64,000 nt of DNA, from positions 9,484,587 to 9,548,586 of the forward strand of contig NC_071333.1 of assembly GCF_010183535.1 (NCBI RefSeq), read 5' to 3'. The notes below the pieces were generated by a model. That model did not search any database. It worked only from the letters and a program-made list of their open reading frames with translations, and was not told the origin of the DNA. This DNA comes from Caenorhabditis remanei. Taxonomy: Eukaryota > Nematoda > Chromadorea > Rhabditida > Rhabditidae. The position numbers and the translations under genes were made by a program. This document shows positions 4,129-37,160 of this stretch, one piece after another (the stretch's first letter is position 1; every line of letters starts with the position of its first letter).

Positions 4129-7100
4129 ATGCTAATTTCATCACCGTTATACCTCTCGACAGCCGCCGTCTTTTCGATAGTGGGGCTATCATTTGTGGTC
4201 TTTGCCGTAGTCACTGACAACTGGATTGAAGTTCAGGTAGATATTTATCAAATTGGATAATGTGGAACTATTTGAAATTACATTTTTATGTGGCCAAATA
4301 ACAAAATGTTCATGATAAGCAGAGTTAATACTGTTTGCTAATCTGTTTTAATCATTGTTTTGATTTTTGGCATTTATGAAATAAATGCCTGCTCAGTTTC
4401 AATCTAGTAGATTTTTCGATTAAACTGGTTTATCTATGAATTCAGTCTTGTAGCCATCTCTCGGATAATATTCCGTCAATTTCGAAATCGATGAATTCAG
4501 GAGGCAGTTTCTTCAATAGACGTTTTTAATTAGGTCTTTCAAAAATCATATTTTTTCGATTCATTCATAGGCATTAACAACAGTAGAATAAAATACTCAG
4601 AATGAAGTAGTTTTACAAATTTGATTAAAATTCATTTTTTGATCTATTTTTTTTGAATATCTTCCATTGTTCGCTAATTTGGTTCTTTGAAACAGTTGGG
4701 ATAAATTTCATTTTCCATTCTCATACAGTTACTGTGATTGACAGTTGTCTATATTTTTTTCAGTTTCCATTTTCTTCTTCCTCAAATTCCTGTTCTGTAA
4801 CTTTCAATCATTTCGTCATTTTTTTGTCCGTTAAATTGGAATTCAACAATTCAACGTCTTTTTTCTTTCCTTTTCGGATTGTCTGTTTTCAATTCGCTTT
4901 TTGACAAACAGACAACACTTTCCCTTTTTCGCGCATCTCGAAACCGCGGTTACATCACAAAAACTTCAATTCACACTTCAGAAACAAAAACAAAAAAAAG
5001 AAGCTAAGCTCTTCTCATTTTTGCTCCTCTTCACTTCTCTTCCCGATTTTGTCCTGTTCGCATCTGCCGCCCCACTATCTATCCCATCCTCAATACTTTT
5101 ATTTGTTGACAACACAACACCGGTGCGATGCTCGAGAGCTTCAAAAGGGAAACCGGCTTGGCGGGGTCCTTGCACACGAAATAGTGATGGTTCTGAGAGG
5201 AGACGGATTGTATTGCCATCCAAGGCAGTAACCCTTTTTGGTCTCTTTGCTCTCTTCTTATTTCCTTGATTGGTCATCTTCCTCCTTACCTCCCATTAAG
5301 GAAGGTTGAGGGAAGGCGAGGGCAAAGGCATTTTGAAGAAGGACAAGGTCAGAAACGCACATCGCAAAAGAATAGGGCAAGTAACAATAAAATGGCTGCT
5401 ACCGCCAGGATATACAACAGGAAGACGTTTTTTGTCTCCTGCCGACTGTGTGACTTTGAGGACTTTGAGGACTTTAGAATGGTTGAACCGAACTACATCA
5501 AATCGTTTGTGTCCGTATTAGAAATTAAGTATTAGGGAACGGAACATGATTCATGCGACGGATGTAACATGATTGGAAGAACATCATTTAGAACATTTCT
5601 GTTTTACGATCTAATCGTTATTACAGGTGAATCGGAGAGAAATCCTCAATTCGTTCAAACGAGAGCCTGAATTGGGATTGCGTCTACAGAATGCATTGGG
5701 ACACAACATTATCTACTTCTCCCGCAACTTTGGTCTTTTCAATCTCTGCTTCCCTGATACCGTTCCACAAGGTTTGCTTTTGCCATTGCTGTTAGTCGTT
5801 AGCCTTGGATAATCCTATGTATACGACAAAAGAAGTTTCTCAAAAAAGTGCTAATCGTCTTTGGCGACCTTACCAGTCATGTCGTACCAAAACAAGTGAA
5901 TGAAGTGCCTTTGTGTGTGTGTGTGGGTTGACTCAATTTTGTTACCAGTTACTTGTTGCTAGAAAACAACCAAGGTCAAAACCAATAAAATTGATTGTCG
6001 AAGGCGAAGGTGTCACGAATTGGCAAGAATTAGAATAGAAGTAGTGAATTGAGAGATCAAAAATCTTTTTTTTACAGATATCGGAAGCTTCATCAAGGCT
6101 GGATCAATCTGCATATGGAATAATGATTTCATGGTTCCTGAATCCAAAAAGGAACATTTCTCGAATAACGAAATCTACCGTCATTATGCCGCTAAGGCCA
6201 CCATCGTCGGTTACCTCATTGGTAATTTCTTTTCAATACATATATTAGAATAGTTGGGCATCTAGTGCAAATCTTCTAGTATTATCCTATCAAGAAACAC
6301 ATTTGGGCAACGCATTAGTCATCGATTATATCCTCTTATTAGCTTTTTGTTGTAAATATCAGAATAACCTGTACAATAGAGTACAACGAGGTGTCACGAT
6401 CCGAGTTGACCAAATATTGACATTAATACACATTTTGATTTGTTCAGGTATTGTTTTCGTCGTGTTGAGCTTCATTATGGGACTCATTGGATGCTGGAAC
6501 AGATCGAAAAAGTTCATCATGGGCACAGGAATTCTTATGATCTTGGCAGGTATTGAAACCCTCAATTGATCTTTTGATCTGAATAATGGAACTTTGTTTC
6601 AGCACTTTCCATGTCGATCGCTATGCTTCTCTGGCATTACGTTGCTTACAGTGAGAGATACACTCTTAATGTTGAACCATACTACCAATCTTGGGAGCCA
6701 GTAAGTAGTTTTTCATACTCTGAAAAATAGCACGACCAAATGTTGTTCTTATTGAAAACATAAGTGTGGTTCAAATCCAAAACACTTGAAACTTTCTGGT
6801 CGCATCACGCAATAATTTTCGAATTGTCTTGTTTGATTCACTTTTCTTGCGAAATATGAAAAAAACGGGGGAAAATTACGTAGGCATGCCATCCAGGACA
6901 CGATGAGCGTAGAATCACTTGAGTATGTGGATGTTTACAATGCAGGATGGACTCTCTTTTTCGCATCATGTCGACACTTCTATCAAGTGTTGGAAAGATG
7001 AGTGAAAGTCCGGACACAATCATCTGGCTACTTTTTCGAATTTCAATTTTTGAAAGGGAACAGCGAGAAAGTTGAGAGATATGAAATGGTCTAGGAATTT

Positions 7101-18352: not shown

Positions 18353-19130
18353 TCGACTGCTTCTATTATTCATAATCAAATTTTTCAACCGCCACGTGTA
18401 AAGTGGTGTTCTTGTCTCACAAACTTCCGGTTACTTTCAATAAATCTTTTTTTTAATTCATTGATTGAAAAGTCATCAATGTTCCTTGTACGCATTTGAC
18501 CATTAAAAACAGCACTTTGAAATGAATAATGGAAATATTTTATAATTATGACCAACCTATACCAGATTAACAAACTATAATGTAATACAAAGAATTTCTC
18601 AAATTGCGTGGTGGTTCTAACTTGTTCATAATCCAAACTCTGACACAATGATACATTTAGCGGCACTCAATGAAAACAATTTCAACTTTACAATTTTTAA
18701 AACTTGGCTCCAAAAACTCTAAATTCATTTCTGGCCAACTAATATTAACAACACAACGACTACCCACCATTCGAATTAAGATTCATTCTCACCTAATGGC
18801 ATTATTTGAAACAGCGTATTAAAAAATGCATTCTTCATTCAGATACAAAATAACAATTGGGATAAAAGCGCAGGGCCACAAATATATCCAAATTATTATG
18901 GGACAATAGAAGCAACTCTACATCAGACATGTGACACATTTTCTTAGCATAAAAAATGCAAAGTTGCAATTTGAAGCTTAATGAGAACTATTGAAAAAAT
19001 AACTTTAATGGTGAAAAGAAGTTTAATGATCAAAATAGACAGAGACAGAATTTTTAAAAGCGTGATGCGAAACAGGAAGAAAAAGGTAACTTTGCAGAAA
19101 ATAAAATTAGCATCTGGTTCTGCAACGTTG
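18353..19130. other. Intergenic, part of the duplicated unit
   Basis: Convergent spacer between the COMT-like gene and the FBXA-type gene. An AATAAA at about 18440 probably ends the COMT-like transcript. The part near 18900-19000 resembles 34800-34910, supporting the tandem duplication. No gene seen. Confidence 0.45.
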
Positions 19131-19520
19131 TTAGAAACGTGAACAGGAAAATGATAGATACATTTTTGTTAGTTCAAATTCGAGTTTTTTTCCATCCTCA
19201 CGCAGAAACATTCCTTTTGTTCTGTTGATTTCTCCCAGTTTCTCATAAGGCTTCAGTGCTTTGGCTTTTTCTTCCACGTCGAACCGTCCGTGAAACTGGT
19301 GCCATAGATAACCTGTTCCCATTAACAGCGCCTGAAAAACAAGTGTCAAACTGTTTTATAATATTTGATGATTGAACAAACATTTTTGTATTCCTGTATA
19401 TCATCCAGTGTGACATCTTTGATTTGAACAACAATTCTCGGGACATTTTTGTAAGCCAGCATTCGTGTATTGGAAGCACAACCGAGTACATCAAATGTTT
19501 TGAAGTGCACCCAATGTGGA

Positions 19521-20018
19521 TGTCGCGGAATTAATAGGTCTTAATTCACGACCTAGCTAAATCACCAAAGCCACACAGGCTCTTACAAATAACAATCGTC
19601 TCCACTAGACTACAACTTTACACGAACAATTCATTAACCAATTCTACGTAACCTTCCAACTTCTCCTCCGGTCAACTCCAACTACAATCAGTCTACCGAA
19701 TGAACGTGACCTTGGCCTACGACAATCTGACCTTTCGATAACCATCTGCCCCACATCTTTCTGCATATAAGGAAATGGAATCAACGGGAAACTTCACTCT
19801 TGCTTAAAAGAAGCCTCCTCAGCTCCCTTGCAAAGCCGTCGTCACAACTACTGCACCGTCGAAGACTTCTGTGGATTCGAAGAAGGAACACCGATGGATC
19901 TCAAGATTCCCTCCTTTGGTTAGTGTAATTGAATAAAGTTGTTTATTATTTCTCTCTCTCTCTTACTGTTGACGCCAAACTCATCTGACTTGGGGTCCGC
20001 GCCCTATAAGTCAGAACA
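19521..20018 (+). repeat. Inverted extra LTR (left arm of the 498-bp palindrome)
   Basis: Starts TGTCGCGGAATTAATAGG and ends ATAAGTCAGAACA, so it has TG..CA LTR termini. It reads as the exact reverse complement of 20094-20591, with the same length of 498 bp. It contains a TATA-like CATATAAGG at about 19764 and an AATAAA near 19933. It lies on the wrong side and in the wrong orientation for a normal element. Confidence 0.9.
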
Positions 20019-20021
20019 TGG

Positions 20022-20092
20022 TGCATCGACCGGGAATCGAACCCGGGCCGCCCGCGTGGCAGGCGAGCATTCTACCACTGAACCACCGATGC
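20022..20092 (-). tRNA. tRNA-Gly(GCC) sequence, cDNA-derived copy between inverted LTRs
   Basis: The minus strand reads as a full 71-nt tRNA: acceptor stem GCATCGG, A box TGGTTCAGTGG, anticodon loop CTGCCAC (anticodon GCC), B box GGTTCGATTCC, then TCGATGC plus discriminator A. It is followed directly by CCA, which eukaryotic tRNA genes do not encode. One base at the 3' acceptor side (T for the C expected from stem pairing) matches the retroelement's own primer-binding site, TGGTGCATCGA. I read this as a reverse-transcribed primer tRNA, not a resident gene, although its internal Pol III promoter looks intact and it might be transcribed. Confidence 0.85.
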
Positions 20093-20093
20093 A

Positions 20094-20591
20094 TGTTCTG
20101 ACTTATAGGGCGCGGACCCCAAGTCAGATGAGTTTGGCGTCAACAGTAAGAGAGAGAGAGAAATAATAAACAACTTTATTCAATTACACTAACCAAAGGA
20201 GGGAATCTTGAGATCCATCGGTGTTCCTTCTTCGAATCCACAGAAGTCTTCGACGGTGCAGTAGTTGTGACGACGGCTTTGCAAGGGAGCTGAGGAGGCT
20301 TCTTTTAAGCAAGAGTGAAGTTTCCCGTTGATTCCATTTCCTTATATGCAGAAAGATGTGGGGCAGATGGTTATCGAAAGGTCAGATTGTCGTAGGCCAA
20401 GGTCACGTTCATTCGGTAGACTGATTGTAGTTGGAGTTGACCGGAGGAGAAGTTGGAAGGTTACGTAGAATTGGTTAATGAATTGTTCGTGTAAAGTTGT
20501 AGTCTAGTGGAGACGATTGTTATTTGTAAGAGCCTGTGTGGCTTTGGTGATTTAGCTAGGTCGTGAATTAAGACCTATTAATTCCGCGACA
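20094..20591 (-). repeat. 3' LTR of BEL/Pao-type element (right arm of palindrome)
   Basis: 498-bp LTR in sense orientation with the gag gene. It is the reverse complement of 19521-20018, with the tRNA copy forming the only spacer. Sense boundaries are TGTCGCGG at 20591 and CAGAACA at 20094. The sequence just upstream in sense is a C-run (CCGCCCCCCAG). Confidence 0.9.
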
Positions 20592-20976
20592 CTGGGGGGC
20601 GGCAAGAGGTGCTCTGAGCACTGGTGGGTAAGTCCAAAGCCACATGTGGTGTCTCTGGGGTGGTGTCGGTGTTTGCAACCGATGATAAATTGATTGTGAT
20701 TGTGTCGATTCTAGTTTGTGAATCATGCTGTACGGGATTGTGTGCCGTTTCCTCGGTTGTCGGAGGGATATCTGGTGTAGACAGAATAGTAGTAACTGGT
20801 GTGATGTTGTTTGGTATTGCACGGTTATGGTGTCCGTTTATATACGATTGTTGTGTGGATTGGTGGTGCGGATCGTGAAGTGGTTCGGAGTGTTCGTGCT
20901 CAAATGTCGATTCCATTTGACCGAAAAAATTGCTTGGTATTGTCATTGGTGGTGAGGCAGTTAACTGATGTGTCAA
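20578..20976 (-). CDS. Shifted continuation of the gag frame into the LTR
   Basis: A 132-codon frame, rich in Thr, Pro, His and Gln, offset by one base from gag and overlapping its last 26 codons. It ends at a stop inside the LTR. It probably represents the residual gag/pol junction after pol was lost and a frameshift occurred. No protease or polymerase motif is present. Confidence 0.45.
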   Translation of the reverse strand: MTHQLTASPPMTIPSNFFGQMESTFEHEHSEPLHDPHHQSTQQSYINGHHNRAIPNNITPVTTILSTPDIPPTTEETAHNPVQHDSQTRIDTITINLSSVANTDTTPETPHVALDLPTSAQSTSCRPPVSRN

Positions 20977-22663
20977 CTTTTTCCCTTTCTGGACAAATTG
21001 AAGAGTGGTGTTTGTTTCTGCACGTAGTGCACGTGTAGCTCGATGGACATTTAGTGACGGTGTGGTCTCGTCGGAAACAATTCAGGCAGCGATTTTGTTT
21101 GATAATCGCCTCTCTTTTATCTTTTATCTTCATTGTGCAAGTGTTTGTCGGATGGTCTTGGTGACAGAACGTACACGGCGCGGACTTCCATTTTGATAGT
21201 TTCGGAGTTCCTTCCGTTTGTGCATTGTTTCGGTTACTGTCGAACTGATTATTCTGGTTACCGTAATGCCGATGTGGTTGGCCTTTTGTGAGTTTGTTAA
21301 TATCTGCCATGCAGATTTCGTTAACCTGTGTCCGGTTTTTCTTTCTTTGCTCCGCCTCATCGACTGCTCGATTCTCGGATATTAGAGTTTGTACTAGGTT
21401 GGCTGCCTCCAAGAAGGATGGAGTGGAGTGACGAGTCATTTTGATAAAGGATCTCATGATCCTGGCTGGTAACTTATCAACAAAGGTATCTATAAGGAAC
21501 GGGTCGTTTACTGCGACTTGACACTTTTGAAGTGAGTTGGTAAGACATACGTGTTTCATCACGTCTTTGTCCATTTGAATGTAGTCCGTTTGGTGGAACG
21601 GAAGATTGCGGTAGTTCTCGATGAGTTGTTTGCGTCGATCGGTTTTTCTGTTGTAAACCCGCTCTAAGTTTGCGCGGAGATCCTCATAGGCGCTTTCCGA
21701 CAACTCATCCGACGTTATAAGATCCTTTGAATCGCCTTCAAGTAGGGATATTAGGATATTTTGTTTCAAGATGGTATTGATTGACGGATTTGAGTGGACC
21801 AATGAATTGAATCTGGTGATGAACAGAGAATAGTGATCTGTGTCGCCGGAGAATGGCTTGAGGGTGTTAAAAATTGTGGTTAAGTCCGTGTGGTAGCTTG
21901 CTTGGGTGCTGATTGGTGAACAGTGAGTTGGACTTGGACTTTGAATTAACGGACTGGGAGATTCTGGTGACGGTGCTTTGTTGGATAATGTGGCATCATC
22001 TTTAGATTTGTTTCCGTTATGTGAGCTAGTCGGACATAATTGGTGGGTTTCGCGTGTGGACTGGGGGTCCATGGTTTTTAGGGAGTGTTCCTCACGTAGT
22101 TGCTGTTGTTGTTGTTCCAGTTGGTCCTGGACAATTTCGAGATTTTTTCTCATTGCCTGAACCGTTTGGATGAGGAAACTTTGTGCTTCTGCGTATTTGT
22201 CAACTTTTTTGTCCATTCTTTTAACAGCGGTGTTAAGTGTCTGTGTGAGCTCGGCTTGTATGGTTTCACCGAATCGGTGTAACATTGCTTCCATATCGTC
22301 AAGTGTTATCGCAGGATTAGCGTTGTAGTTGTTGTTTGGGAGAGTGGGTGGAGTTGAATCACTCATATAAATTCTGTGGTGTGGTTCTGACGACTTTGGT
22401 TTAGTCAAAATTGGACCATTCGGTTCGTAAGATGACGGGAATGAGTGGTGTCCCGTATTGTTCGTAGTGGAGCGTTGATAGTGTTTCTCAGTCGGGCTCG
22501 GTTGGTTGCCAACTAGTTGTTTCAACATCACTTCGATGTACTGCTGAATTGCTTTACATCTTGTGATCAAGGTGGGATAGTTGAGTTCGTTGATGTGATC
22601 ACAAAGTTCGAGAACATTGCTGGTACGTATTTCCGCACTGGAGCACAACGCTGGGTGTTTCAT
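20900..22663 (-). CDS. BEL/Pao-type Gag polyprotein
   Basis: A 587-residue frame. Residues about 95-190 form a predicted coiled coil with a Gln-run (QLEQQQQQLREEHSL). Residues about 260-450 resemble DUF1759-type capsid of BEL/Pao elements (KPFSGDTDHYSLFITRFNSL, then LPARIMRSFIKMTRHSTPSF). The C-terminal part has Cys/His knuckles CTFCHQDHPTNTC, CLNCFRRDHTVTKC and CTTCRNKHHSSIC, the usual nucleocapsid signature of this class. The frame is open upstream of the first Met back to about 23009, with coding-like residues (DIQLILTDPQQPEIISVLRT), so translation may begin further upstream or after splicing; a TTTCAG lies at about 23000 in sense. The stop at 20900 is followed by a one-base-shifted continuation. 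Confidence 0.8.
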   Translation of the reverse strand: MKHPALCSSAEIRTSNVLELCDHINELNYPTLITRCKAIQQYIEVMLKQLVGNQPSPTEKHYQRSTTNNTGHHSFPSSYEPNGPILTKPKSSEPHHRIYMSDSTPPTLPNNNYNANPAITLDDMEAMLHRFGETIQAELTQTLNTAVKRMDKKVDKYAEAQSFLIQTVQAMRKNLEIVQDQLEQQQQQLREEHSLKTMDPQSTRETHQLCPTSSHNGNKSKDDATLSNKAPSPESPSPLIQSPSPTHCSPISTQASYHTDLTTIFNTLKPFSGDTDHYSLFITRFNSLVHSNPSINTILKQNILISLLEGDSKDLITSDELSESAYEDLRANLERVYNRKTDRRKQLIENYRNLPFHQTDYIQMDKDVMKHVCLTNSLQKCQVAVNDPFLIDTFVDKLPARIMRSFIKMTRHSTPSFLEAANLVQTLISENRAVDEAEQRKKNRTQVNEICMADINKLTKGQPHRHYGNQNNQFDSNRNNAQTEGTPKLSKWKSAPCTFCHQDHPTNTCTMKIKDKREAIIKQNRCLNCFRRDHTVTKCPSSYTCTTCRNKHHSSICPEREKVDTSVNCLTTNDNTKQFFRSNGIDI

Positions 22664-22749
22664 AACAAGCGATATTGCTTCGCTGTCTGATTTTTTGAGC
22701 TTTATGAGTTGCTCGTTAAGCTTGTTGTAGCTTGTTCGGAGTACAGATA

Positions 22750-23208
22750 TTATCTCCGGTTGTTGAGGATCTGTGAGGATGAGTTGTATATCCTTGATAA
22801 TTTGAGCCGTTTTGCTAGCTCTTTTAGTGAATATTGTTTTGGCAGGGCCAAGATTGGTCCAAGGAACTTGGTGTTTGGTAACAGATTCAGTGGATGAGGT
22901 GGAGCGAGTTGATCTATTGCGAGTTCCACCGGCATTCTTCGAAGAGTTGCTACGGCGTGCACGACGGCTGGAGCACGAAGAATTCCTAGACGAGTCTGAA
23001 ATGATAGACCGTTAGTTTTGAGGGTATCGTGGATGCTTGTGTTGATCAAATTGGTCTCGCGGTTCTTATGTGAACTTTTGGTATAGTGGTATTGGTGGTG
23101 ATCGAGAGAAGTTGTGATTACTCGATACGATATGTTTACGGAACTTGTGTAGGGACTTGTTGTTAGTAACAAAACAAAAACAACGCTTATCGTGTGCTTC
23201 ATCAGCAC
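22750..23208 (-). other. Overlapping open frame in retroelement leader
   Basis: A 152-codon frame beginning with a hydrophobic stretch (MLMKHTISVVFVLLLTTS). It overlaps the upstream extension of gag in another frame. The gag frame has the more protein-like sequence across the overlap, so this may be a leader peptide or chance. Confidence 0.25.
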
Positions 23209-23411
23209 TAGTCGTGTGCATTTTCAGCACTAGTCGTGTGCATTTTCAGCACTAGTCGTGTGCATTTTCAGCACTAGTCGTGTGCATTTTCAGCACTAGT
23301 CGTGTGCATTTTCAGCACTAGTCGTGTGCATTTTCAGCACTAGTCGTGTACCTTATTGGCACTAGTCGTGTGCATTATGAGCACTAGTCGTGTGCATTAT
23401 GAGCACTAGTT
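23205..23411 (-). repeat. 22-bp tandem repeat, nine copies, in retroelement leader
   Basis: Nine head-to-tail 22-bp units (plus strand GCACTAGTCGTGTGCATTTTCA) plus a partial tenth. The first six look identical and the last three vary at the end (ACCTTATTG, GCATTATGA). They lie between the primer-binding site and gag. There are no spacers, so this is not CRISPR-like. Confidence 0.9.
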
Positions 23412-23802
23412 ACAAGCTCGTACTTGTTCCGTAGTGTGGTACGAGCATGTGAAGTTGAAGCTATTCGGTGTATGAAGGAATAGCGAAGTATAAGTGGTAC
23501 CTGTAAGTACGTGTTGTATGTGGTTCGGTTCAGTGGTAGTATTTGATGCCGATGTGAGAGTTGTGATACTTGTTATTGCTCAGTGCCACGTCTTCTACTC
23601 GAAAAGACCAGAGCAATAGTATCTTTTTTGTGTGGATTGTGTACTATTCCATTTTGTGCCCCCAGTGGTGGAGAATGTAATAGCCTGTGGTGACTCTTGC
23701 TTTATCGGAAGTGCCGATAGTTGTTACTGATGCCGTGTATTTGCATATTAAGACTCAAACTCTTAGCACTGTTTTCGCCACCGCTGGGTTGTGTACCACG
23801 GT

Positions 23803-23813
23803 TCGATGCACCA
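23803..23813 (-). other. Primer-binding site (tRNA-Gly)
   Basis: Directly after the LTR end CAGAACA, the sense strand reads TGGTGCATCGA, complementary to the CCA end and acceptor stem of tRNA-Gly. The following bases (ACCGTGG) no longer match, giving an 11-nt site. Confidence 0.85.
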
Positions 23814-24470
23814 TGTTCTGACTTATAGGGCGCGGACCCCAAGTCAGATGAGTTTGGCGTCAACAGTAAGAGAGAGAGAGAAATAATAAACAACTTTATT
23901 CAATTACACTCGATGCACCATGAAATGACACCTTTGAGGGACGGTGGGCCCGTGTCAAACTTAGTATATGAGAGTAACAGAAAGAGGAGAAAACTAACAA
24001 CTTTATCAACATGAATACCAGAAAGAGTTCTCTTGCCCTTGAAGTTAGGCATCTCCAGAGCTGCCGTAGTTGGCGGTGAAGGTGTTGGACTCCTCCCTGA
24101 TCCAAGCTTGTGAGCTTCATCCGCCGGCACTCCATGTAGAGATCCACACAGCCAGTTTCCAAGGGTCTTTCGGCAGACATGGTAGAACGTCGGAGAGTGA
24201 ATGATCGAGAGACGACGACTTCTGACGGCTTCCTCTTCCTTATATGCACAAAATGTAGAGCAGATCGTTATCGTAAGGTCACCAGGTTGAGTTTAGGAGA
24301 GCACGTCCAGAATAGTATTGGTTTCAGTATAGTTGATCACGGTTCACGTTTCACGCAGTTGTTAGTGTTCATTTTATTATTTATTATATTTTGAGTAAAT
24401 TGTGTAAATCTGGCAATGGACCAGGCTTAATACTCAAGGTCGTGAATTAAGACCTATTAATTCCACGACA
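23814..24470 (-). repeat. Chimeric 5' LTR: LTR type B + primer-binding site + R/U5 of type A
   Basis: In sense, a 549-bp LTR of a second type (24470-23922; starts TGTCGTGGAATTAATAGG, ends GTCATTTCA) is followed by TGGTGCATCGA (23921-23911). Then come 97 bp (23910-23814) that look identical to the last 97 bp of the 498-bp LTR, and then the primer-binding site again. The two LTR types share about 34 bp at their 5' ends but differ in the middle. Confidence 0.8.
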
Positions 24471-25498
24471 AAGTGCACCCAATGTGGATTTTCAATAATA
24501 TTCGTCAAGGCAGAGTCGTCAGATCCGTTTGTTGAGAAATATAACAAATCCAATTCGGTCAGACTTCCCACTTTCACTTTTTTCAAGATAGATTCCAGAG
24601 CATTCGTGCTTGGTAGTTCGATCTTGAGAGATTCAACGTAGATCGGTTTTTTAATTTTTTCGAAAATAAGATGCAGAAGTTTTTCTTGTTTTTCTGCCAG
24701 GTCACGTTGACTATTGCGTGTGATAAACAGCTTTCTCAATTGTGTCTTCGGGTCTTGGATAATCTGCTCGAACTTGTCGGCTGTTTCCTGGAGAAAACAT
24801 TTGTGCGATGAATTCGATTCCTGGTCGTCTTCTTGGAGTTTTCTTTTTCTTTCGTAAAATTCAAGATCCTTATTTTCAGGGGTTGGAAATATAACTTTAT
24901 GATGATCCAAGTGGATGTGCACTTTGTTCGGTTTCCAATTTTCATCAATAAAATTCAACAATTTTTTACACTTAAACTGCAGCGCTCTCCTGAAATAAAC
25001 ATGCTAGGTTTTGAAACTTAGTATTCACTCACTTAGTCTTAATGTCGACTAGTTCGGCAATTTTTTTTAGCATATCGCTACCAATTGTTGTCAACGTGTG
25101 AGAGTTTTGATTGGAGTCACTGCCAGTGTCACTGAAAAATTGTTAACTATTTTTGTACGAAATGTACAGAAAGTTTCTTGTCTCTGAAAGTATTTTTGCT
25201 GAACTGCGCTTGCTCACACTGTTTTTTTGAATGATCCGATAATCAAAATTAATAAGCAGCCGGTACGAAACAAAACAACTTACCTGACAGTGGCTAGAAC
25301 GTCTTGTGGTTCATTGTTTATTGTTTCCTTGATATTATACTTCTGAGACGATTGACTCCAAGCATCTAGCTGTTCATTGGTGATTTCCGGAAGCGCCTGA
25401 CAAAAAAGACGCCATGTTTCTTCTGGATCGGAATCCACAAGAAGTTTTACGAAAGCCAGTCTTTGCTTCAGAAATGGATCTTTTCCGTTTTCTGACAT

Positions 25499-26140
25499 TT
25501 CAAAATACCCTGAAACAAAGGGAAATGTATTATTTTGGAAGCCTAAAAAGAGTCTTCAAAAACAAGTCAGAATTCAAATTAAAACAAAAGTGGAATGCAC
25601 CAAGGAATAATCATTACGGACAAAGCACCGGACTTGATGACAGCTCTTCGTGGTGAGCACTCGAGAATTAAGAACAACACATTTATGGAACTATAAACTC
25701 ATTGCTTGTAAAGAGGTCAAAAATAAAAATGACACGGATTAGTACTGTAAATTATCACGTTTTCCATTATAAACAGAAAATATCATAAAACCTATTTCTC
25801 AGAAACCCAATACTACGTTTATTATCTATTCAAAAATGAGCCAGTATTAGACACTAATAATTTCAATATTCTAAAAAATTATAGAAAACTGGAAACCATC
25901 CACAAAACTGGAAAAAAAAGAAGCTAAATTAATAATTTTAGGAGAAGGAAGGAATCAAGAGACAATAGGCCCTCTGTCATATGCAAGCCCCCTTCCCCCT
26001 CTCATACTCAATCCAGTCGAGACCTTCGTTCGGAGGAAAAGGCACGTCCCTTTAAACGGTTTTGGCGCGAAAGTTAATAATTCAAATCTGATTATCAATT
26101 ATTTGGACTTTTTGAGAGATTCGAAACTTGAAAATTTATT
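25499..26140. other. Upstream flank of FBXA copy A (duplicated)
   Basis: No gene seen. The stretch 25838-26140 is nearly identical to 36845-37157 upstream of copy B, including ATAGGCCCTCTGTCATATGC, so it marks the duplicated unit. It probably holds the FBXA promoter. Confidence 0.6.
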
Positions 26141-27986
26141 TCCCGACAGAATCGAACATGGCGAAGAATAAAAAAACGAAAAAAAAATTTTTCAGACATA
26201 TATTGATATTTATTTAACTATTTAATTCTACAGTAAAAGTCACTGGAGGTCAGGTAAAGTTCCTCACGAGACGAAACCTGAGAAAAAGAAACCGGGTGAA
26301 GAAGGAGAATCATAAAATAGGAGTTGGGCAAGGTGGAAGGAGAATAAAAGAAAAATTATCAGAATCGTGCAATGTTATTCACAAGAAGGGACTTGAATTC
26401 TGAAGGGCAAAGGAAATGAGGGACATGTAAAGTTATGGAATTCCATATAGGTATAATAATTGAGAAGAAATTAGTACAATTAAGATTTACACAGATGAGA
26501 CACATTGGGCGACGAGAGGAGGAGCTTAACCTGACATGGGTTTCAAGATTAGGGAAATATGAGGCGCCGATTATGAAGTTATATAGGAGAAGAAGTTGCG
26601 CTTTGAGTCTACGGTGGCGTATAGAAAATAGATCGAGCTGGGAGAGGCGATCAGAGTAGGAGCGATAAGGTGTGTTACAGCGTTGAAGAATTTTCCGCGA
26701 AAAGAATCTGAGAGGAGTTTAAAGTTTGAGGGCTAGTTTCGAAGATGGGGGAGGAGAATATACAACAGAGCAGTATTCCACTAGAGGGAGAACGTAAGTT
26801 TTAAACAGGAAGATATAAAATTGGGGAGAGTTGGATTTGAAAGATTTCAGTAGTTGCTTAGAACGAAGTAAGAGCAACAACCCGATTAATGTGTCTAGTG
26901 AACTTGAGATTAGGTTCTATTAATAAACCTAAATCCCTGACAGAATCGACGGAAACAATGAGGGAACCTCCAATAGTGTACGGGTGAGATGAGTTGCAAG
27001 ATCCAAAACGAAGAAGGGCTGTCTTAGAGTGGGCCAAAGGTAGAGAGTTGTTAGAAGCCCAAGAATCTACCAAGTTGATTCCCATTTGGAGTGCAAGAGG
27101 ATCATGGGAGAACAATTTAATATCGTCAGCGAATCCTGCGATATGTAGCAAAGGGATGTCCTCAAGTTTCAACAGGAGATCATTGATAAATACTAAGAAA
27201 AGGAGGGGGCCAGACACGGAACCCTGACGGACACCAGAGGGGATAGATGCAGAGGAAGCGTCAACGAAGTCATCAATCTTGACAGAGAAAGTTCGATCTG
27301 AGAGAAAATCAGCAAACCAGGAAGTGATATTGATAGGGATTCCAAAGTTGTCTAGTTTTGAAATAAGAAATTGGTGATCCACACAATCAAATGCCTTTCG
27401 GAAGTCAAAATAGACAACGTCCAGAGACTTTTGATTGGAGAGGACCAATCTATATTCCGAGATAGAGTGGACAAGTGAACTAGAGTACGAACGTTTAGAG
27501 AGAAATCCATGTTGAAACTTGCTAACGTTACGGAAAAAATACATTCTTATATAATTACACAAAATACGCTCACATATGCGAGAAAACGGGTCTATGAGCG
27601 ATATCGGGCGGTAGTTTTCAGGAAAGGTCAAGGATCTTTTTTTGGGAATTGGGATGATGATAGTGTGTTTCCAAGAAGCAGATACGTGTGACTTGAGAAA
27701 AGAGTCAGAGTAGATTATTGAAAACGGAATCGCGAGGGCATTAGCACAGTTTCTTATGATATAGAAGTTGGCATGATGAATAGCAAAACCACAACGGGGA
27801 GGGATGTGACGTAACGTGTTCTCGATGATCCATGGAGGAAACAGCTCAGAAGCTGTTGGGGAGGAGACTTTATTGCTAGAATTGTTTGACACGGAGATGA
27901 GCGAGCTAGAAGGGAAGCAGTTGTAGTTACTAAAGAATACCGATGAGAAAATGGAGGACTTAGCTGCGTTGGAGGAAATCAATTGA
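26141..27986 (-). mobile_element. 5'-truncated LINE (non-LTR retrotransposon)
   Basis: Homology to the unit-B flank stops after GAAAATTTATT (26140) and resumes near ATATGTGACC (27987), so about 1.85 kb is inserted. It holds a reverse transcriptase frame in minus orientation and, past that frame's stop, shifted remnants of the C-terminal region (SDRLSQLDLFSIRHRRLKA). The endonuclease half is missing, as in typical 5'-truncated copies. A clear target-site duplication could not be assigned because copy B has a MITE in the same place. Confidence 0.75.
26858..27982 (-). pseudogene. LINE reverse transcriptase fragment
   Basis: A 374-codon frame with reverse transcriptase motifs in order: YRPISLIDPFSRICERIL, YFDFRKAFDCVDH (motif A), GVRQGSVSGPLLFLVFINDL (motif B), GFADDIKLF (motif C with the catalytic ADD) and RDLGLLIEPNLKFTRHI (thumb side). 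It is jockey/CR1-like in style. The N-terminus is missing and the frame stops early at ALTSF, with the remaining C-terminal part in other frames, so the copy is dead. Confidence 0.8.
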
Positions 27987-28722: not shown

Positions 28723-29153
28723 TGTTACATGTCCCTTGGTTGGGTCATGTCTTCCAGTCTGTCTTTTACTGCGGCCTAGACCTCTGGTGGGGTCTAGGAG
28801 GCAGTTTCTTTTTCATACATTCACAACAGTACACATTTAGAATAATGGAGTTTATTTATGAACGGTTAGTAAAAGGGTACATATATAATTGGTCTAGCTA
28901 AGGGATAAAATCACATAATCATGTTATCGTTCGTTCGGAGGTTAAGTGTAAAAGAAAACTACAAGAAAACTAAAAGAAAGAATGTCGAAAAGGCCGAGCA
29001 GAGGAGGTGTTCTCTCTGCGACCAGCCAGGTGGCTTGCCGGAGGCAAGACTGATTGGTGACTCTTCTTTTTCTATCTCTTATCTCTCTTCCTCAGATGTT
29101 GCACTTAACAGCTGGAGCTGTTTTTGTTTACGCCTCGCATGATTCGTATGACA
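28723..29153 (-). repeat. 3' LTR of Ty3/gypsy-type element
   Basis: 431 bp, plus-strand boundaries TGTTACATGTCCC and TTCGTATGACA. It matches 33727-34157 throughout by eye. Confidence 0.9.
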
Positions 29154-29513
29154 TCCCACCCCTTCAAAAGTTAGCACCGTCCCTGGTGCTATATTTAGGG
29201 GTTTTCCACTTCCTTTTCTTTTTGCTCTTCAAAATCACTTTTCCACATTTCCATATTCCTTTCTTTTTCCAATTTGTATTCTTCGGTTTTCGTTCCTGAT
29301 ATTCTTCTTGATCTTTTCCGAACAGCTATGCATTGTCTTCTTCTGCTTCTTCTGATGTTTCCTTTTTCTTTTTTTTTGACAAGATTTATTCGATCCGGTT
29401 TCCTTCTTCATCCGAGTGCTTCATTTTTTTTTCAGTTGCTTTGCTACATTTTCTTCTTTTTTCTACTGAGATCTTTGCTACCCGAAACTTCGTATACTCG
29501 ATGTGTTTTTCCA

Positions 29514-31451
29514 TTATCTCTTGTAGTGGAATGCTTGTTTTCCATAACATCGAACTTGAATTTTCTTTGGGTAGTTCAGTGGTTTCCATCTTGAAAATTT
29601 TCTTTTGGGCGATGTTGGTGCAGCAGTTATTTGATGAAGGCCTTGATGGAAATCGAAAGTAGTTGAAAGATTCGACCTTCCTTGGAAGTTGAAGATTATG
29701 CTCTGTTTTGGTGATGGTGAAGCATTCAGAGCTTTGAAATCGAGTGTCATCCTGTATTTCAGCTTGTCGTCCTTTCTCACAAGAACGATTGGTTCTGGAA
29801 ACATTGAATCCGTATTTCTGACTATCCGTGGCTCAATCATCTCTTCAATAACCATTTGGGCTGAACAGTTTCTGGTTTCGGATCCATTGGTAGTTCCAAT
29901 GAAAATCAAAATCATCAGAATTCCCAGACAATATTTGTTGAGACTGTTGACTATAAATGGTCTGCCAGTAAACGGGTCCCATTCGATTCTCCGATTCTCT
30001 TCCGTTTCTTGTGGAATCTGGTTTGAGGGTCCTGATCCAGATTGATTTGAGATGTCGCTTTCTTCGTTCCAGTGTTGTGGCTGATTGTCCCATTCTTCTT
30101 GGTCCCAGCTTCTTTGATTCCAATTATTCTGATTCCAGTTTCCTTGATTTTGATCTTGATAAGCTGCATAAGGGTGATTTCCACTGAACTGGTATCCTTC
30201 ATTCTGATTAAATTCCTCTTCATAGTCTTCTCTTGCATCGAAATCTGGGAAGTGATCTTCTTGTTGTTGCTGGAAGTCTTGTTGTGGATAAGCTTCTCTT
30301 TGTTGAAATCCTCTTCCTCTGAAGAATCCGCGTCCACGGGATGGTCCTCTTTCTCGGTTCCAGTTTCCCGGATTTTGCTGGCTGATGTTCATCTCCTGAA
30401 CTGCAGCAATGGTGGCTTCCAACGTATCCTCTTCATCTTCCAGATCGAGAAGTCTTTGAATTTTCTCCGCTTCTGCTGCCATGGCGCTCAGTGTTTTCGG
30501 GATATTCTGAAGCTGGCGCAGTCGTGTCTTCACCTTCTTTCCACATCCTGCCAGGAAGTGTGATGACATGAGCAGCTCCTTGCTTTTCTCCGGAATTCCT
30601 TGATAGCAATATTCGCCGAGTGTTTTGATGTGGCTGGCGAATTCACTGATCGTTTTCTTTCCTTGTTGGGCGGAAGTCAATTCTTGGAGCGACAGCTCTC
30701 TGTCCGTCGGGCAGTCGTGTGCCAGCATCAGTTGTTTCGTGACTCTCTCCCAGTCTTTGACGATTTTCGGGTCCAAGTTGTTGTATTTGAGTAGAGCAGT
30801 TCCTGACAAGAAGAACGGGAGGAGCTCGGTGCCCACTTCTCTGGGGATCTCCATCCTATACACAAGCTTAGCGTATTCTTTTAACCAGCGATGTAGGTCC
30901 GAAGACTTCCCTTCCGAGAATTTTTTGATTCTCGGGTCCATCATTTTTGCAAGCTCGCCTTTTTCCTTCCAAGCCGGCATCTGGTTTCTTGGAGCTTCTT
31001 GCGGAAGTCTTCCTGTTCCATCTTTGCCTTCTCCACTTCTTGACATGGTTGCGTTTGGAGTGAAGAAGTCGCGGGACAGTGACTCTTCTTCTGATGATGA
31101 TTTTGGAGCCTCTTCTCTTTGAATCAGCGTTTCCTCTTCTTCTTCTTCTTCTTCTGATGATGATTCTTGACCTTCTGTTTCTCCTGTGTAACTAGAGAAG
31201 TTTGGGAATGCTTCTTCCAATCTTGGAGATCGATGGCCTGGTATGGGTGTGCTGGATCTGGGAGTCCGGACGGTGGTGGGAGTTCGGGTTGTGATGGGTG
31301 TCCGGTCGGTGGGGCGAGCTCTTTCTGGGGTAGTTCTCCGGACGATGGTAGAGGCTTCTTCAGTGGTGGATGTCACGTTCTCTTCTTCTTCTTCTTCTTC
31401 TTCTTGGTGAACTCTTCTTCTGACTTGGCTTCTCAGAATCCTGTCCGACAC
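29514..31451 (-). CDS. Gag with fused reverse-transcriptase fragment
   Basis: A 645-residue frame. Residues 1-150 are acidic and Thr/Pro/Glu-rich with Glu runs. Residues about 180-340 resemble a retrotransposon capsid (retrotrans_gag) region (SSDLHRWLKEYAKLVYRM, then TDRELSLQELTSAQQGKKTI). A Gln/Asn/Arg/Gly-rich segment follows (GRGFFRGRGFQQREAY, NQNNWNQRSWDQEEWD) with no CCHC knuckle. Near residue 510 comes a hydrophobic signal-like stretch (NKYCLGILMILIFIGTTNG), then a piece of reverse transcriptase (PEPIVLVRKDDKLKYRMTLD, then STTFDFHQGLHQI). The catalytic YxDD region, protease, RNase H and integrase are absent. The order suggests internal deletion and rearrangement. Confidence 0.75.
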   Translation of the reverse strand: MSDRILRSQVRRRVHQEEEEEEEENVTSTTEEASTIVRRTTPERARPTDRTPITTRTPTTVRTPRSSTPIPGHRSPRLEEAFPNFSSYTGETEGQESSSEEEEEEEETLIQREEAPKSSSEEESLSRDFFTPNATMSRSGEGKDGTGRLPQEAPRNQMPAWKEKGELAKMMDPRIKKFSEGKSSDLHRWLKEYAKLVYRMEIPREVGTELLPFFLSGTALLKYNNLDPKIVKDWERVTKQLMLAHDCPTDRELSLQELTSAQQGKKTISEFASHIKTLGEYCYQGIPEKSKELLMSSHFLAGCGKKVKTRLRQLQNIPKTLSAMAAEAEKIQRLLDLEDEEDTLEATIAAVQEMNISQQNPGNWNRERGPSRGRGFFRGRGFQQREAYPQQDFQQQQEDHFPDFDAREDYEEEFNQNEGYQFSGNHPYAAYQDQNQGNWNQNNWNQRSWDQEEWDNQPQHWNEESDISNQSGSGPSNQIPQETEENRRIEWDPFTGRPFIVNSLNKYCLGILMILIFIGTTNGSETRNCSAQMVIEEMIEPRIVRNTDSMFPEPIVLVRKDDKLKYRMTLDFKALNASPSPKQSIIFNFQGRSNLSTTFDFHQGLHQITAAPTSPKRKFSRWKPLNYPKKIQVRCYGKQAFHYKR

Positions 31452-33708
31452 CGACGTGGGGTCTCGTGGGTTCTTCTTTTTCGGCAGCAGTTTGGACGAT
31501 TTCCTGTTATTCCAGTGATGTTCGTCTTTGAGCCTTCTTCTCCTGATTCTTCTATTTCTCTGTGACCTTCTGTGGTATTCTTGTTGAGCTTTGTCGAATC
31601 CCTTCTGTCTTCTTTTCCCTGCTTCCTTTACTCTTCTCTGTTCTTGTTCCTCTTCTTTCTTCTATCTTCTTTCTTCTTGGGTCCACCGTGGGGGGTAACC
31701 CTTCTTTTTGATTTATTTATTTTTCGGACGCCTAACCCTGCCTCCGGTTTCCCGTGGGGTCCAGCTGTCCGGCTCAACTAAGATCCTGCTCCCGGTTTTT
31801 CGATCACCGGTGGGGTCTGTGGATCCACGCTTTCAGCTTGCCTAAAGCTGAGGGGGGTCCGGTCAGTTAGGGAATATTTGTTGAGAAGTTTTTGGAGTTT
31901 TTGTTTTGAAAAATAGCTCTTTTTTTCCGAAAGTTTAGAGCGTTCCCTTGTTTGATTTTTCCGAAAAATCCACGGTTTGATTTTTATTCAAAATTGGGAA
32001 CAGTATATTTATTTTTTTCTGAACCAAAGATAAATAAACTAACTTTCGACTGGTTGCTGGAAGGTGTGGAGTGGGGCGTTGGGCGGTGTTGAGCAGTGGA
32101 GGAGATGTGTCGATGGTGTCAGTAGTCCTTGCTTCTTCCTTCAATGGCTGCTTGCACTGCAGTGGTGTGGCTGTGACGGCTGTGTGGGGTGCGTTCGAGT
32201 TCGGTAACTAAAATCATTCGATAATTGTTCAGAGTTTGTTAGGGATATTTAAAAGCAGTCGTGGTTACTGAAGATTTAGAAAAAAAACTTTAAAACTAAA
32301 ATGCAAAAAAAAAATGATTCCAAGAAATTTTCCGGAGCCGTCTCTGATCCGGAATATGTGTTCGACTGGCTTTTCTCGATTGCATCGCTGTGGGGCGGAG
32401 TTTGTTTTTATCCTCTTGATATCATAAATCTTCACCGCGGCGTCACTTGTGCTATCACACTCCTCTGATTCCATTAGATTTTTCCTTTATCCTTTTGTTT
32501 TCCCTAAGCATATCATGCGGGTGGGACTTTCTGTTGACTACTTTGTACTATTGTTATTCTGGTAATGACTGAACAAATGTTATTTTTGTCTTACCGTAGT
32601 ACTTCCACTCTTTGGCTCCTCCTATCTGCTTACGGTGGCTTTTCTGATTGGTTTGTTATTGTTGGAATTATTAGAGAGAATTAGAGAAAAGAACTATGCT
32701 AATAAGTTTCTACCAGTCCGTTCTAGTAATTTCTCTGCTGCCCTTACGGAACAGTTAAGTCCGGTGGCGAGGTGTTCGATGGTATCCGATTGAAGTCCAA
32801 ACTAATATGAAAATAATTTTTCACGACCGAGCATTCATTCAATTTTTCTCATTCATTTTCCTGAAGGCTAGCCCTCTTCTAGCCAGCAGGTACGTCCTTT
32901 CCAGTAGGTTCCAAGGAGGCCAATCCTCTTTCCAGTGGGGGTGTCGTAAATTTTTTCTATACTACATCTCCCTACACAATTCTTCATTCATTTTTTCTGC
33001 CGGCGTCCACGATTTCTTCTTTTAATTTTTCTCTGCAGTATCCAGCCTGCTTTTTATCTATTGGAGATTTCTTCATTTTCTTTTTCGTGGATCTTCAATG
33101 TATTCTTTGGCTCGTACATGTCCTGGATCGGATGCGAACTATTGATTCGTTTCCGCTGGATACGGGTATCTTATTTGGCCCAGAATAAGATCCCTCCAGG
33201 TGTCGTGTTAGTAAAAAACAATTACGGACGGTTCTTGTATAAGTGAGGGTTTCAAGAACATTACTGTCATACAAAAAAAACGATACAACTAGTTATAACA
33301 CCAAGAGGTTATTAGAAAAACGTGGTTCCAAGATGTAGCGGTTATGCAAAAAAAATTTTGCGGTTAGCATGTTTTTCACTCTCTTTTTATGTTACAACGG
33401 ACTTTCAAAATTCGGTACGGCGAAACTTACCCTATACAGTATACTCTGGCATACTCCGCTTCGGTTTTGTTGAAGAGAGGAGATCCAATATGAAAATCAC
33501 GGTTAGCTACTCCGTCCTTTTCTGGTGGAAGTATCTCTGAACTACTTCCTTAACTGGGTCTACTGCGCAGAGGCGATTTCCTAGAATGGGCCGGATGAGA
33601 GAATGTGGTTAATGTCGCTTCTCTCCTATGGTGTGACTGAGATGAATGTATGGACTGGGGTGGAATAATAGCACAGTGGGCTCTCGGTTCTGCAACCCGT
33701 TGGGTGAG
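31452..33708. other. Long 5' leader of Ty3/gypsy-type element
   Basis: About 2.3 kb between the primer-binding site and gag with no convincing frame on either strand. The part 31680-31870 repeats GTGGGGTC-type motifs next to CCCGGTTT. Such leaders usually hold packaging signals, but I see nothing definite. Confidence 0.4.
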
Positions 33709-33714
33709 TTCCGT

Positions 33715-33726
33715 GTGGGACCTCCA
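33715..33726 (-). other. Primer-binding site (tRNA-Gln-like)
   Basis: The sense strand reads TGGAGGTCCCAC immediately after the LTR end ACATGTAACA. This fits the 3' end of a tRNA-Gln (GTGGGACCT + CCA). Confidence 0.65.
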
Positions 33727-34157
33727 TGTTACATGTCCCTTGGTTGGGTCATGTCTTCCAGTCTGTCTTTTACTGCGGCCTAGACCTCTGGTGGGGTCTA
33801 GGAGGCAGTTTCTTTTTCATACATTCACAACAGTACACATTTAGAATAATGGAGTTTATTTATGAACGGTTAGTAAAAGGGTACATATATAATTGGTCTA
33901 GCTAAGGGATAAAATCACATAATCATGTTATCGTTCGTTCGGAGGTTAAGTGTAAAAGAAAACTACAAGAAAACTAAAAGAAAGAATGTCGAAAAGGCCG
34001 AGCAGAGGAGGTGTTCTCTCTGCGACCAGCCAGGTGGCTTGCCGGAGGCAAGACTGATTGGTGACTCTTCTTTTTCTATCTCTTATCTCTCTTCCTCAGA
34101 TGTTGCACTTAACAGCTGGAGCTGTTTTTGTTTACGCCTCGCATGATTCGTATGACA
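33727..34157 (-). repeat. 5' LTR of Ty3/gypsy-type element
   Basis: 431 bp, same boundaries and by eye the same sequence as 28723-29153. It contains a TATATAAT-like element near 33884 (plus-strand reading). Confidence 0.9.
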
Positions 34158-34625: not shown

Positions 34626-35041
34626 TTACAAATATTTATTATGAGAGAAATCAAAAATATCTGGTTGGAAGGTGAATTATACAATATATAATGACATTTT
34701 TAAAAACTGCTTGTTGAAAAATTCAATTAATAACCAGACACAAACCGGAGCAATTACGATACAAAACACTAAAAGATATAATTTTAACAAAATTTTTGTG
34801 AAACAGTAGAAGCAACTTAGTATACATACATCAGACATGTGAAAAATGTTCCTATCACAAAACATGCAAAAATGTAATTTCAAATTTAAAGAGAACTGTT
34901 GAAAAATTTACCTTCCAACCAAATACATAAGGGAACGCTTATAATCAAAATACACAGATATATCAATTTTAAAAACGCGTTGTGAAACAGAAATAAAAAA
35001 ATAACTTTAAAGCGGATAAAATAGCATTTGGTTTTAAAACA

Positions 35042-36537: not shown

Positions 36538-37160
36538 TTTTCAAGCACTCTGAAACAAAGAAAAATTTATTATGTTTGAATCCTAAGAAGAGTCTTCAAA
36601 AACAAGCTAGAAATCGAATGTAAACAAAAGTGCAATGCACCAAGGAATAATCATCACGGACAAATCACCGAACTTGACGATAAGTTTTTTTTGACGAGAT
36701 AATTTTTTTCAGCTGCTTTTCAGCTGCTGAATGTTTCTGAAGAACAACTTTTCTTCAAAATTGAAATCTCGAATTATCGTTCATGCGAGGTAAACTACAT
36801 CATATAACCTATTTCTCTGCAACTCAATACTACGTTGATTATCTATTCAAAAATGAGCCAGTATTAGACACTAATAATTTCAATATTCTAAAAAATTATA
36901 GAAAACTGGAAACCATCCACAAAACTGGAAAAAAGGAAAGTTAAATGAATAATTTTAGGAGAAGGAAGGAATCAAGAGACAATAGGCCCTCTGTCATATG
37001 CAAGCCCCCTTCCCCCTCTCATACTCAATCCAGTCGAGACCTTTGTTCGGAGGAAAAGGCACGTCCCTTTAAACGGTTTTGGCGCAAAAGTTAATAATTC
37101 AAATCTGATTATCAATTATTTGGACTTTTTGAGAGATTCGAAACTTGAAAATTTATTCTA
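36538..37160. other. Upstream flank of FBXA copy B (duplicated)
   Basis: No gene seen. 36845-37157 is nearly identical to 25838-26140. It probably contains the promoter of copy B. Confidence 0.55.

What the first reader, a model, noticed from the sequence alone, without database searches (positions are those of the whole stretch)
19521..20591. Perfect LTR-tRNA-LTR palindrome: a complete primer tRNA copied into the genome
Two 498-bp LTRs in inverted orientation (19521-20018 and 20094-20591), reading as exact reverse complements, are separated only by a 71-nt tRNA-Gly(GCC) sequence plus the complement of CCA on one side. CCA is added after transcription, so the tRNA part came from mature tRNA by reverse transcription. 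The base where the tRNA deviates from a paired acceptor stem equals the element's own primer-binding site (TGGTGCATCGA), so the first 11 nt came from the element and the rest from the tRNA. Normally plus-strand synthesis stops at modified A58 of the primer. Here it seems to have run to the tRNA 5' end, after which the acceptor-stem complement could have folded back and primed synthesis across the LTR. A 3-nt loss (expected GATGCACCATG, seen GATGCATG) marks the turn point. This would be a snap-back cDNA fossil and a way to scatter tRNA sequences with intact Pol III promoters.
Basis: partly seen in the sequence, partly recalled or inferred. Interest (0 to 1): 0.92.

Follow-up and report, generated by a model that had tools for sequence, protein, structure and literature searches.

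The report
Primer tRNA fossilised inside inverted LTRs
A retrotransposon in a nematode chromosome carries a DNA copy of the whole tRNA that primed its own replication, trapped between two mirror-image LTRs, and fourteen other places in the same genome hold a similar copy of that tRNA, so it looks like the fossil of a recurring replication accident.

Summary
Two 498-nt LTRs, exact reverse complements, flank 75 nt: the complement of tRNA-Gly(GCC)+CCA, and one A. The genome is Caenorhabditis remanei PX506, chromosome X. The genome search gave 17 CCA-bearing tRNA-Gly copies at 15 loci, 11 of them behind a recognised LTR end, and 16 intact tRNA-Gly(GCC) genes without CCA. A second LTR-tRNA-LTR palindrome, from another LTR family on chromosome II, lies in an element with identical 571-bp LTRs and a 5-bp target duplication, so that one formed in the cDNA before integration. 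Two copies share one wrong base opposite A58, the expected m1A58 stop. Best reading: reverse transcriptase ran through the primer tRNA to its 5' end and then continued on the U5 end of an LTR strand. The real unit is 19521-24470, with an unusual 18-bp target duplication.

The parts
19503..19520 (.). left copy of the 18-bp target duplication AAGTGCACCCAATGTGGA
   Evidence: identical to 24471-24488; single copy in the related uninterrupted stretch near 35.4 kb
19521..20018 (+). LTR 'A' (U3-R-U5, TG...CA), the arm followed by the anti-tRNA; read as plus-strand strong-stop DNA (inference)
   Evidence: other genomic copies of the same LTR at 97-99%, a solo copy with 5-bp TSD AAGCA
20019..20021 (-). 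complement of the post-transcriptionally added CCA
   Evidence: absent from the 16 intact chromosomal tRNA-Gly(GCC) genes
20022..20092 (-). complete 71-nt tRNA-Gly(GCC), identical to the 16 intact chromosomal genes
20093..20093 (.). single A between the tRNA 5' end and the inverted U5 end; may be the retained last primer nucleotide A76
   Evidence: retention of the last primer ribonucleotide is stated for HIV-1 in a passage of PMC5618025; application here is inference
20094..20591 (-). inverted LTR 'A', 498/498 identical; probably the natural 3' LTR of the minus-strand element
20592..20603 (-). PPT-like tract directly upstream of the 3' LTR (...GCCGCCCCCCAG)
   Evidence: similar boundaries in L072 and in the C3 and C5 loci
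20900..22663 (-). gag-like ORF, 587 aa, DUF1759 (taken as a Bel/Pao gag marker from memory)
   Evidence: E 9.1e-16, above the curated cut-off
23137..23444 (-). leader with an array of 22-bp repeats
   Evidence: related repeats in the C3 and C5 loci
23803..23813 (-). 11-nt PBS (TGGTGCATCGA) of the element
23814..23909 (-). extra R-U5 piece of LTR A between two PBS copies
   Evidence: identical to the LTR A end; comparable layout in L030
23910..23920 (-). second PBS copy (TGGTGCATCGA) directly after LTR B
23921..24470 (-). LTR 'B', the other U3 terminus of the insertion
   Evidence: similar LTR at L033 and, cut at its U3, in the C3 locus
24471..24488 (.). right copy of the 18-bp target duplication

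Best explanation
The 19521-24470 insertion is an aberrant cDNA of a Bel/Pao-like LTR retrotransposon, made before integration. Step 1: plus-strand synthesis copied U3-R-U5 and then, instead of stopping at m1A58 of the primer tRNA-Gly(GCC), ran through the whole tRNA to its 5' end. Step 2: the 3' end of that strand, now outside any PBS pairing, was continued on or joined to the U5 end of an LTR strand from which the primer had been removed, probably except for its last A. This produced U3-R-U5 / anti-tRNA / A / U5'-R'-U3' and on through PPT', gag', leader', PBS'. Step 3: the molecule was inserted by its two U3 ends, with an unusual 18-bp duplication. Shown by sequence: the anatomy, the CCA, recurrence, and (for the chromosome II relative, not for the window copy itself) formation before integration. 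Inferred: m1A58 read-through as the trigger, retention of A76, the exact joining step, and the order of events at the window. My split for step 2: end-to-end template jump to a separate or opposite strand 0.55, true intramolecular snap-back 0.30, ligation or end-joining of strand ends 0.15.
For: Mature tRNA origin: of 36 tRNA-Gly-like matches (all 36 scored) 17 carry the CCA complement, 16 are intact genes without CCA, 3 are fragments without CCA. In 11 of the 17 a recognised LTR end precedes the CCA directly (9) or with one T between (2: L009, L027); in 6 (L008, L031, L032, L035, L044, L048) I did not prove an LTR. A pattern for any tRNA with CCA behind CA gave 14 hits, 13 of them tRNA-Gly(GCC), one (L063) not a tRNA; reversed-pattern control 1. 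Reverse transcription past A58: L009 and L044 both have plus-strand T>A at nt 19, opposite A58; chance of two such hits among 6-7 substitutions is 0.0003-0.0004 for that exact change, 0.0026-0.0037 for the position (devised after seeing the data). An 18-nt tRNA end, the length expected from an m1A58 stop, stands on the C side of L029. Before integration: C2:15740441-15750238 holds LTR D, tRNA (68 nt), inverted LTR D (468/468 identical), R-U5, full tRNA, R-U5, PBS and a 3' LTR 571/571 identical to the 5' LTR, with TSD AAGAT. Other tRNA-bearing insertions with 5-bp TSD: L027 AACAG, L009 TAGAT, L033 CAGAA, C5 locus AATGG with a caveat. Both palindromes start the inverted LTR exactly at its U5 end, preceded by an A.
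Against: No reads were seen and only one assembly was available; the palindrome was not checked independently. The window insertion has an 18-bp duplication where L005, L009, L027, L030 and L033 have 5 bp, so its own integration was not ordinary and capture at a break is possible. The C3 locus has one truncated outer LTR and no TSD that I could see; L007 shows no clear TSD. The two palindromes have different joints (A; TGGA with six tRNA nucleotides missing), so no single joint rule is shown. The anti-tRNA strand folds no better than many shuffles (z -1.13; 27 of 200 at least as stable). m1A58 on C. remanei tRNA-Gly was not tested.
Confidence: 0.86

Rival explanations
1. Intramolecular snap-back: the acceptor half of the copied tRNA pairs with its complement next to U5 and primes copying of its own LTR. 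(It shares steps 1 and 3 with the best explanation and is one of the three versions of step 2.)
For: Arms 498/498 identical in the window and 469 nt exact in L030. In the minimum-energy DNA fold the last six bases pair with GCATCG next to the LTR. In L029 the full anti-tRNA is followed by ACCA, the four bases that self-priming would add first, before the strand continues elsewhere.
Against: Expected ACCA is A in the window; L030a lacks the pairing half; C3 joins LTR B to a C-type LTR and C5 joins the last bases of a U5 end of LTR A to LTR C with no tRNA, so other routes to inverted LTRs exist. The fold is not better than shuffles.
Confidence: 0.3
2. Head-to-head end-joining of two finished cDNA ends (one with a tRNA tail) by host repair, followed at the window by capture at a chromosome break.
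For: 18-bp duplication at the window insertion; filler TGGA at the chromosome II joint; head-to-head joints of different LTRs.
Against: The chromosome II molecule continues through a GTGTTG microhomology switch into R-U5, a second full tRNA and a further R-U5-PBS, and ends in a 3' LTR with a 5-bp TSD, which is simplest as one chain of polymerase template switches.
Confidence: 0.15
3. Ordinary insertion of LTRs on both sides of a resident tRNA gene, as in tRNA-gene-targeting elements.
For: The tRNA is intact and identical to real genes over 71 bases.
Against: CCA is present in these copies and absent from the 16 intact genes; no terminator close by in the 15 copies measured, against 16 of 16 genes; where TSDs were found they lie outside the LTR-tRNA unit.
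Confidence: 0.01
4. Assembly artefact (false palindrome).
For: Perfect palindromes are a known artefact type (recalled); no reads seen here.
Against: The spacer is a CCA-bearing tRNA, the arms end exactly at LTR ends with different flanks, and LTR-tRNA joints without a palindrome occur at other loci.
Confidence: 0.03

Closest known systems
Full read-through plus-strand strong-stop DNA of HIV-1 on unmodified tRNA-Lys3 (product 'P1' in the review PMC13191261; section 10 and passages read)
   Same: Plus strand copied to the tRNA 5' end because m1A58 did not stop it
   Different: Described there for in vitro transcribed tRNA, with extension beyond A58 also in methyltransferase-mutant cells, and not listed among products that can serve for transfer; here integrated copies exist in a germline genome, apparently rescued by template switches
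tRNA or PPT inserts at HIV-1 2-LTR circle junctions (PMC5618025, passages seen)
   Same: Primer tRNA sequence left at the U5 end of cDNA
   Different: 2-LTR circles, unintegrated; no inverted LTR pair in the passages seen
Helenus / TRIMp3 elements (PMC10886601, abstract and passages seen)
   Same: LTR elements that carry tRNA sequence
   Different: There the tRNA-like sequence lies inside the LTR and a SINE insertion is proposed as its source; here it lies at the PBS, antisense, with CCA
Strong-stop DNA hypothesis for tRNA-derived SINEs (Ohshima, Okada and others; recalled, not seen)
   Same: Postulates DNA copies of primer tRNA fused to LTR sequence
   Different: There a hypothesis for SINE origin; here the fusions are seen, but at scattered loci with different LTRs, with no sign of amplification of one fusion

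Membership tests
Bel/Pao LTR retrotransposon (the carrier) | gag of the DUF1759 type | tested here: met
   E 9.1e-16; that DUF1759 marks Bel/Pao is recalled
Bel/Pao LTR retrotransposon (the carrier) | LTRs TG...CA with PBS directly behind and PPT before the 3' LTR | tested here: met
Bel/Pao LTR retrotransposon (the carrier) | pol with RT and integrase of the Pao type | not tested
   the only ORFs of 150 aa or more between the LTRs of the window copy are the gag ORF and a 152-aa ORF; pol of relatives not examined
Bel/Pao LTR retrotransposon (the carrier) | short fixed target duplication | tested here: not met
   window insertion 18 bp; L005, L009, L027, L030 and L033 5 bp
Reverse-transcribed primer tRNA | CCA, not encoded in the tRNA genes | tested here: met
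   17 copies with; 16 intact genes and 3 fragments without
Reverse-transcribed primer tRNA | tRNA 3' end abuts the LTR U5 end; same tRNA as the PBS | tested here: met
   window and 10 further copies behind recognised LTR ends; 6 copies unproved
Reverse-transcribed primer tRNA | signature of a modified template | tested here: inconclusive
   2 of 17 copies changed opposite A58, not the window copy; modification itself not measured
Snap-back (self-primed) palindrome | identical inverted arms | tested here: met
Snap-back (self-primed) palindrome | stable self-complementary turn | tested here: inconclusive
   six pairs in the predicted fold, but z -1.13
Snap-back (self-primed) palindrome | joint equals the self-primed extension (GATGCACCATGTT) | tested here: not met
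   GATGCATGTT in the window, CCACTGGATGTT in L030
Functional tRNA-Gly gene | Pol III terminator close behind the tRNA | tested here: not met
   nearest TTTT 209 nt after the CCA; true genes 4 nt after A73

The most novel reading that the evidence does not exclude
In these elements, run-off through the primer tRNA followed by end-to-end jumping is a standing alternative to the normal second strand transfer: 11 of 141 LTR-end/PBS words (ACATGGTGCATCGA) continue into tRNA (one of the 11 for 49 nt only), and two insertions (chromosome II, C3) show LTR-tRNA followed by R-U5-PBS, as the window does with an 11-nt PBS in place of the tRNA. It would steadily feed LTR-tRNA fusions and inverted-LTR elements into the germline, the raw material postulated for tRNA-derived retroposons.
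Probability: 0.35. Interest if true: 0.78.

Novelty: new variant of a known kind. Interest (0 to 1): 0.64.

Why it matters
The m1A58 stop is treated as the step that makes the second strand transfer possible, and full read-through as a product that cannot be used (PMC13191261). A set of integrated read-through products lets one read strand-transfer errors directly from a genome, ask how often the tRNA stop fails in vivo, and test whether LTR elements seed new tRNA-like sequences and palindromes in animal germlines.

Tried and rejected
(2) Resident tRNA gene between two insertions, rejected (CCA, TSDs outside, no terminator). (3) The same event for other tRNAs: one pattern scan gave no other tRNA (1 of 14 hits is not a tRNA; control 1). 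The pattern needs CA directly before TGG and so misses 4 of the 17 Gly copies (L009, L027, L032, L044); it is a weak test of absence. (4) A special fold of the anti-tRNA strand: not better than shuffles. (5) A TSD directly around the palindrome: none; the 18-bp duplication spans the longer insertion. (6) L035: the 77-bp repeat around its tRNA does not look like an LTR pair; left unresolved. L007 has no clear TSD; the outer ends of L008, L024, L031, L032, L044 and L048 were not resolved. (7) The G50:C64 form of the tRNA: both changes in 5 of 17 copies, one of the two in L027; the only chromosomal copy found with it is a truncated gene, L070.

Literature: searches showed no paper whose title or abstract start describes integrated LTR-tRNA-LTR palindromes. 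These lists were mostly partial (25 of 52, 15 of 20, 8 of 9, 15 of 49, 14 of 14, 15 of 57 and 12 of 30 papers shown). Read beyond listings: PMC10886601 (abstract, passages), PMC13191261 (passages, section 10), PMC5618025, PMC5014426 and PMC6317226 (passages), PMC10461856 (passages, section 6). Most subscription journals are not held, so this is no proof of absence from print.

Full report
What is there. The window is C6:9484587-9548586 of a 130,466,896-base, 186-contig assembly. The six large contigs C1-C6 have exactly the lengths of C. remanei PX506 chromosomes I, II, III, IV, V and X in Table 1 of PMC10461856 (section 6 read), so the window lies on X. The two 498-nt arms are exact reverse complements and the 75-nt spacer is the reverse complement of T + tRNA-Gly(GCC) + CCA.

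The true unit. The arms are not a free-standing pair. Read on the minus strand the order is LTR B (24470-23921), PBS (23920-23910), an R-U5 piece of LTR A (23909-23814), PBS (23813-23803), leader with 22-bp repeats, gag-like ORF with DUF1759 (22663-20900), a PPT-like tract, LTR A (20591-20094), T, tRNA-Gly, CCA, inverted LTR A (20018-19521). The whole 4,950-bp piece is flanked by AAGTGCACCCAATGTGGA on both sides; in a related stretch of the window (34827-36086) the 18-mer occurs once and the flanks are contiguous. Both outer ends are U3 termini, so the insertion has inverted LTRs at its ends.

It is a class, not a single case. A search with the 75-nt spacer gave 36 matches, all scored: 16 intact genes matching bases 4-74 at 100% and lacking CCA, 3 fragments without CCA, and 17 copies with the CCA complement. 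The 17 lie at 15 loci (C2:15.741 Mb and C3:8.139 Mb hold two each). Before 11 of the 17 I recognise an LTR end: the window, L007, L024, L028, L029, both in L030, L033 and L034 directly before CCA, L009 and L027 with one T between. For L008, L031, L032, L035, L044 and L048 an LTR was not proved. Seven copies reach the tRNA 5' end, eight stop 1-6 nt short of it, two (L044, L048) are rearranged or cut. A pattern for any tRNA with CCA behind CA found 13 tRNA-Gly copies and one non-tRNA, control 1. The LTR-end/PBS word ACATGGTGCATCGA occurs 141 times (control 0), and 11 of these continue into the tRNA: 7 are among the 100 places printed, the other 4 are known from their own sequence. Most of the remaining 130 sites were not read.

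Formation before integration. On chromosome II (L030 and L072) the order is: TSD AAGAT; LTR D 571 bp; tRNA 68 nt; TGGA; inverted LTR D, 468 nt identical; a switch at GTGTTG into R-U5; full tRNA; ACATGGTGC; R-U5; ordinary PBS; body; 3' LTR 571/571 identical to the 5' LTR; TSD AAGAT. The simplest reading is one recent integration of a molecule that already contained the palindrome and two tRNA copies; I did not read the body between L030 and L072. L033 is LTR B, full tRNA, part of LTR C, with TSD CAGAA; L027 and L009 are short two-LTR elements (LTRs 100% over 509 and 97.6% over 205 bp) with the tRNA at the PBS and TSDs AACAG and TAGAT. At C5 a 6.9-kb insertion with an LTR-tRNA-leader joint has inverted LTRs at its ends and AATGG on both sides, assuming that a five-base TGTCG repeat at the left edge belongs to the insertion. 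At C3 the order is LTR B (cut at U3), full anti-tRNA, ACCA, 18-nt tRNA end, inverted C-type LTR, gag' and leader' pieces, PBS', U5'-R', tRNA (71 of 74 nt), inverted LTR E; I saw no TSD there.

Read-through of A58. L009 and L044, which share no flank, both carry A in the plus strand opposite A58 (nt 19). Among 6-7 substitutions in the 17 copies (the linked G50:C64 changes set aside) two at this exact change have probability 0.0003-0.0004, at the position 0.0026-0.0037; the test was made after seeing the data. The window copy itself has no such change. L029 holds an 18-nt tRNA end on its C side, the length expected from a stop at m1A58. The review PMC13191261 (section 10 read) describes these two products for HIV-1 and does not count the full-length one among those active in transfer.

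The joint. Self-priming predicts GATGCACCATGTT; the window has GATGCATGTT. HIV-1 primer removal leaves the last ribonucleotide (PMC5618025, passage). If that holds here, the minus strand would begin with A followed by TGTTCTG, and the window joint is the complete anti-tRNA joined to that end with nothing lost; the chromosome II joint also has A before TGTT. This is inference. L029 has ACCA after the full tRNA, which looks like a short self-primed extension followed by a jump to a different LTR. So fold-back pairing may help, but joining of different LTRs does occur. The DNA fold of the anti-tRNA pairs its last six bases with the PBS region, but is no more stable than shuffles.

Consequences. 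ARAGORN calls a tRNA at 15 of the 17 copies (not L044 or L048). But the 16 real genes have TTTT 4 nt behind A73, and in the 15 copies measured it lies 19-1226 nt behind the CCA (L044 and L048 not measured), so ordinary tRNA expression is unlikely without later change. The copies remain possible starting material for tRNA-like retroposons.

Limits. One assembly, no reads, no other Caenorhabditis genome, no expression data. Frequencies are descriptive: 17 copies at 15 loci are what one search found.

Noticed in passing
window 23527-23538; L009 LTRs (1483, 2001); L027 LTRs (1439, 2625): The 12-mer TACCACTGAACC, complementary to the tRNA-Gly D-arm region, occurs outside the tRNA copies in the leader or LTRs of three elements (chance about 0.008 per 64 kb, both strands). 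It may be a second primer contact; a passage of PMC5014426 suggests a bipartite primer site for a yeast element on similar grounds.
   Followed up: partly
28723-34157: A second, different LTR element (minus strand) with end repeats identical over 431 bp, gag-like ORF 29514-31451 (Retrotrans_gag), sequence TGGAGGTCCCACACGG behind the LTR and an apparent 4-bp duplication GTTC.
   Followed up: partly
18919-19521, 24471-26140, 34827-37157: The insertion sits in one copy of a duplicated stretch with an FTH-domain-like ORF (24434-24961, match just under the cut-off; its counterpart 35263-35868 was not scanned), so it may have broken a member of that family.
   Followed up: partly
C5 locus (L073), about position 5575-5590 of the stretch joined: The last bases of a U5 end of LTR A are joined head to head to an inverted LTR C with no PBS or tRNA between them: an inverted LTR joint by another route.
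   Followed up: partly
L029, L030 (two), L033, L034, L027; L070: tRNA-Gly isodecoder with the T-stem pair C50:G64 changed to G50:C64 occurs in 5 retro-copies (L027 has one of the two changes), but the only chromosomal gene found with it is truncated (L070).
   Followed up: partly
26858-27982 (-): Reverse transcriptase ORF (RVT_1), type not determined.
   Followed up: no
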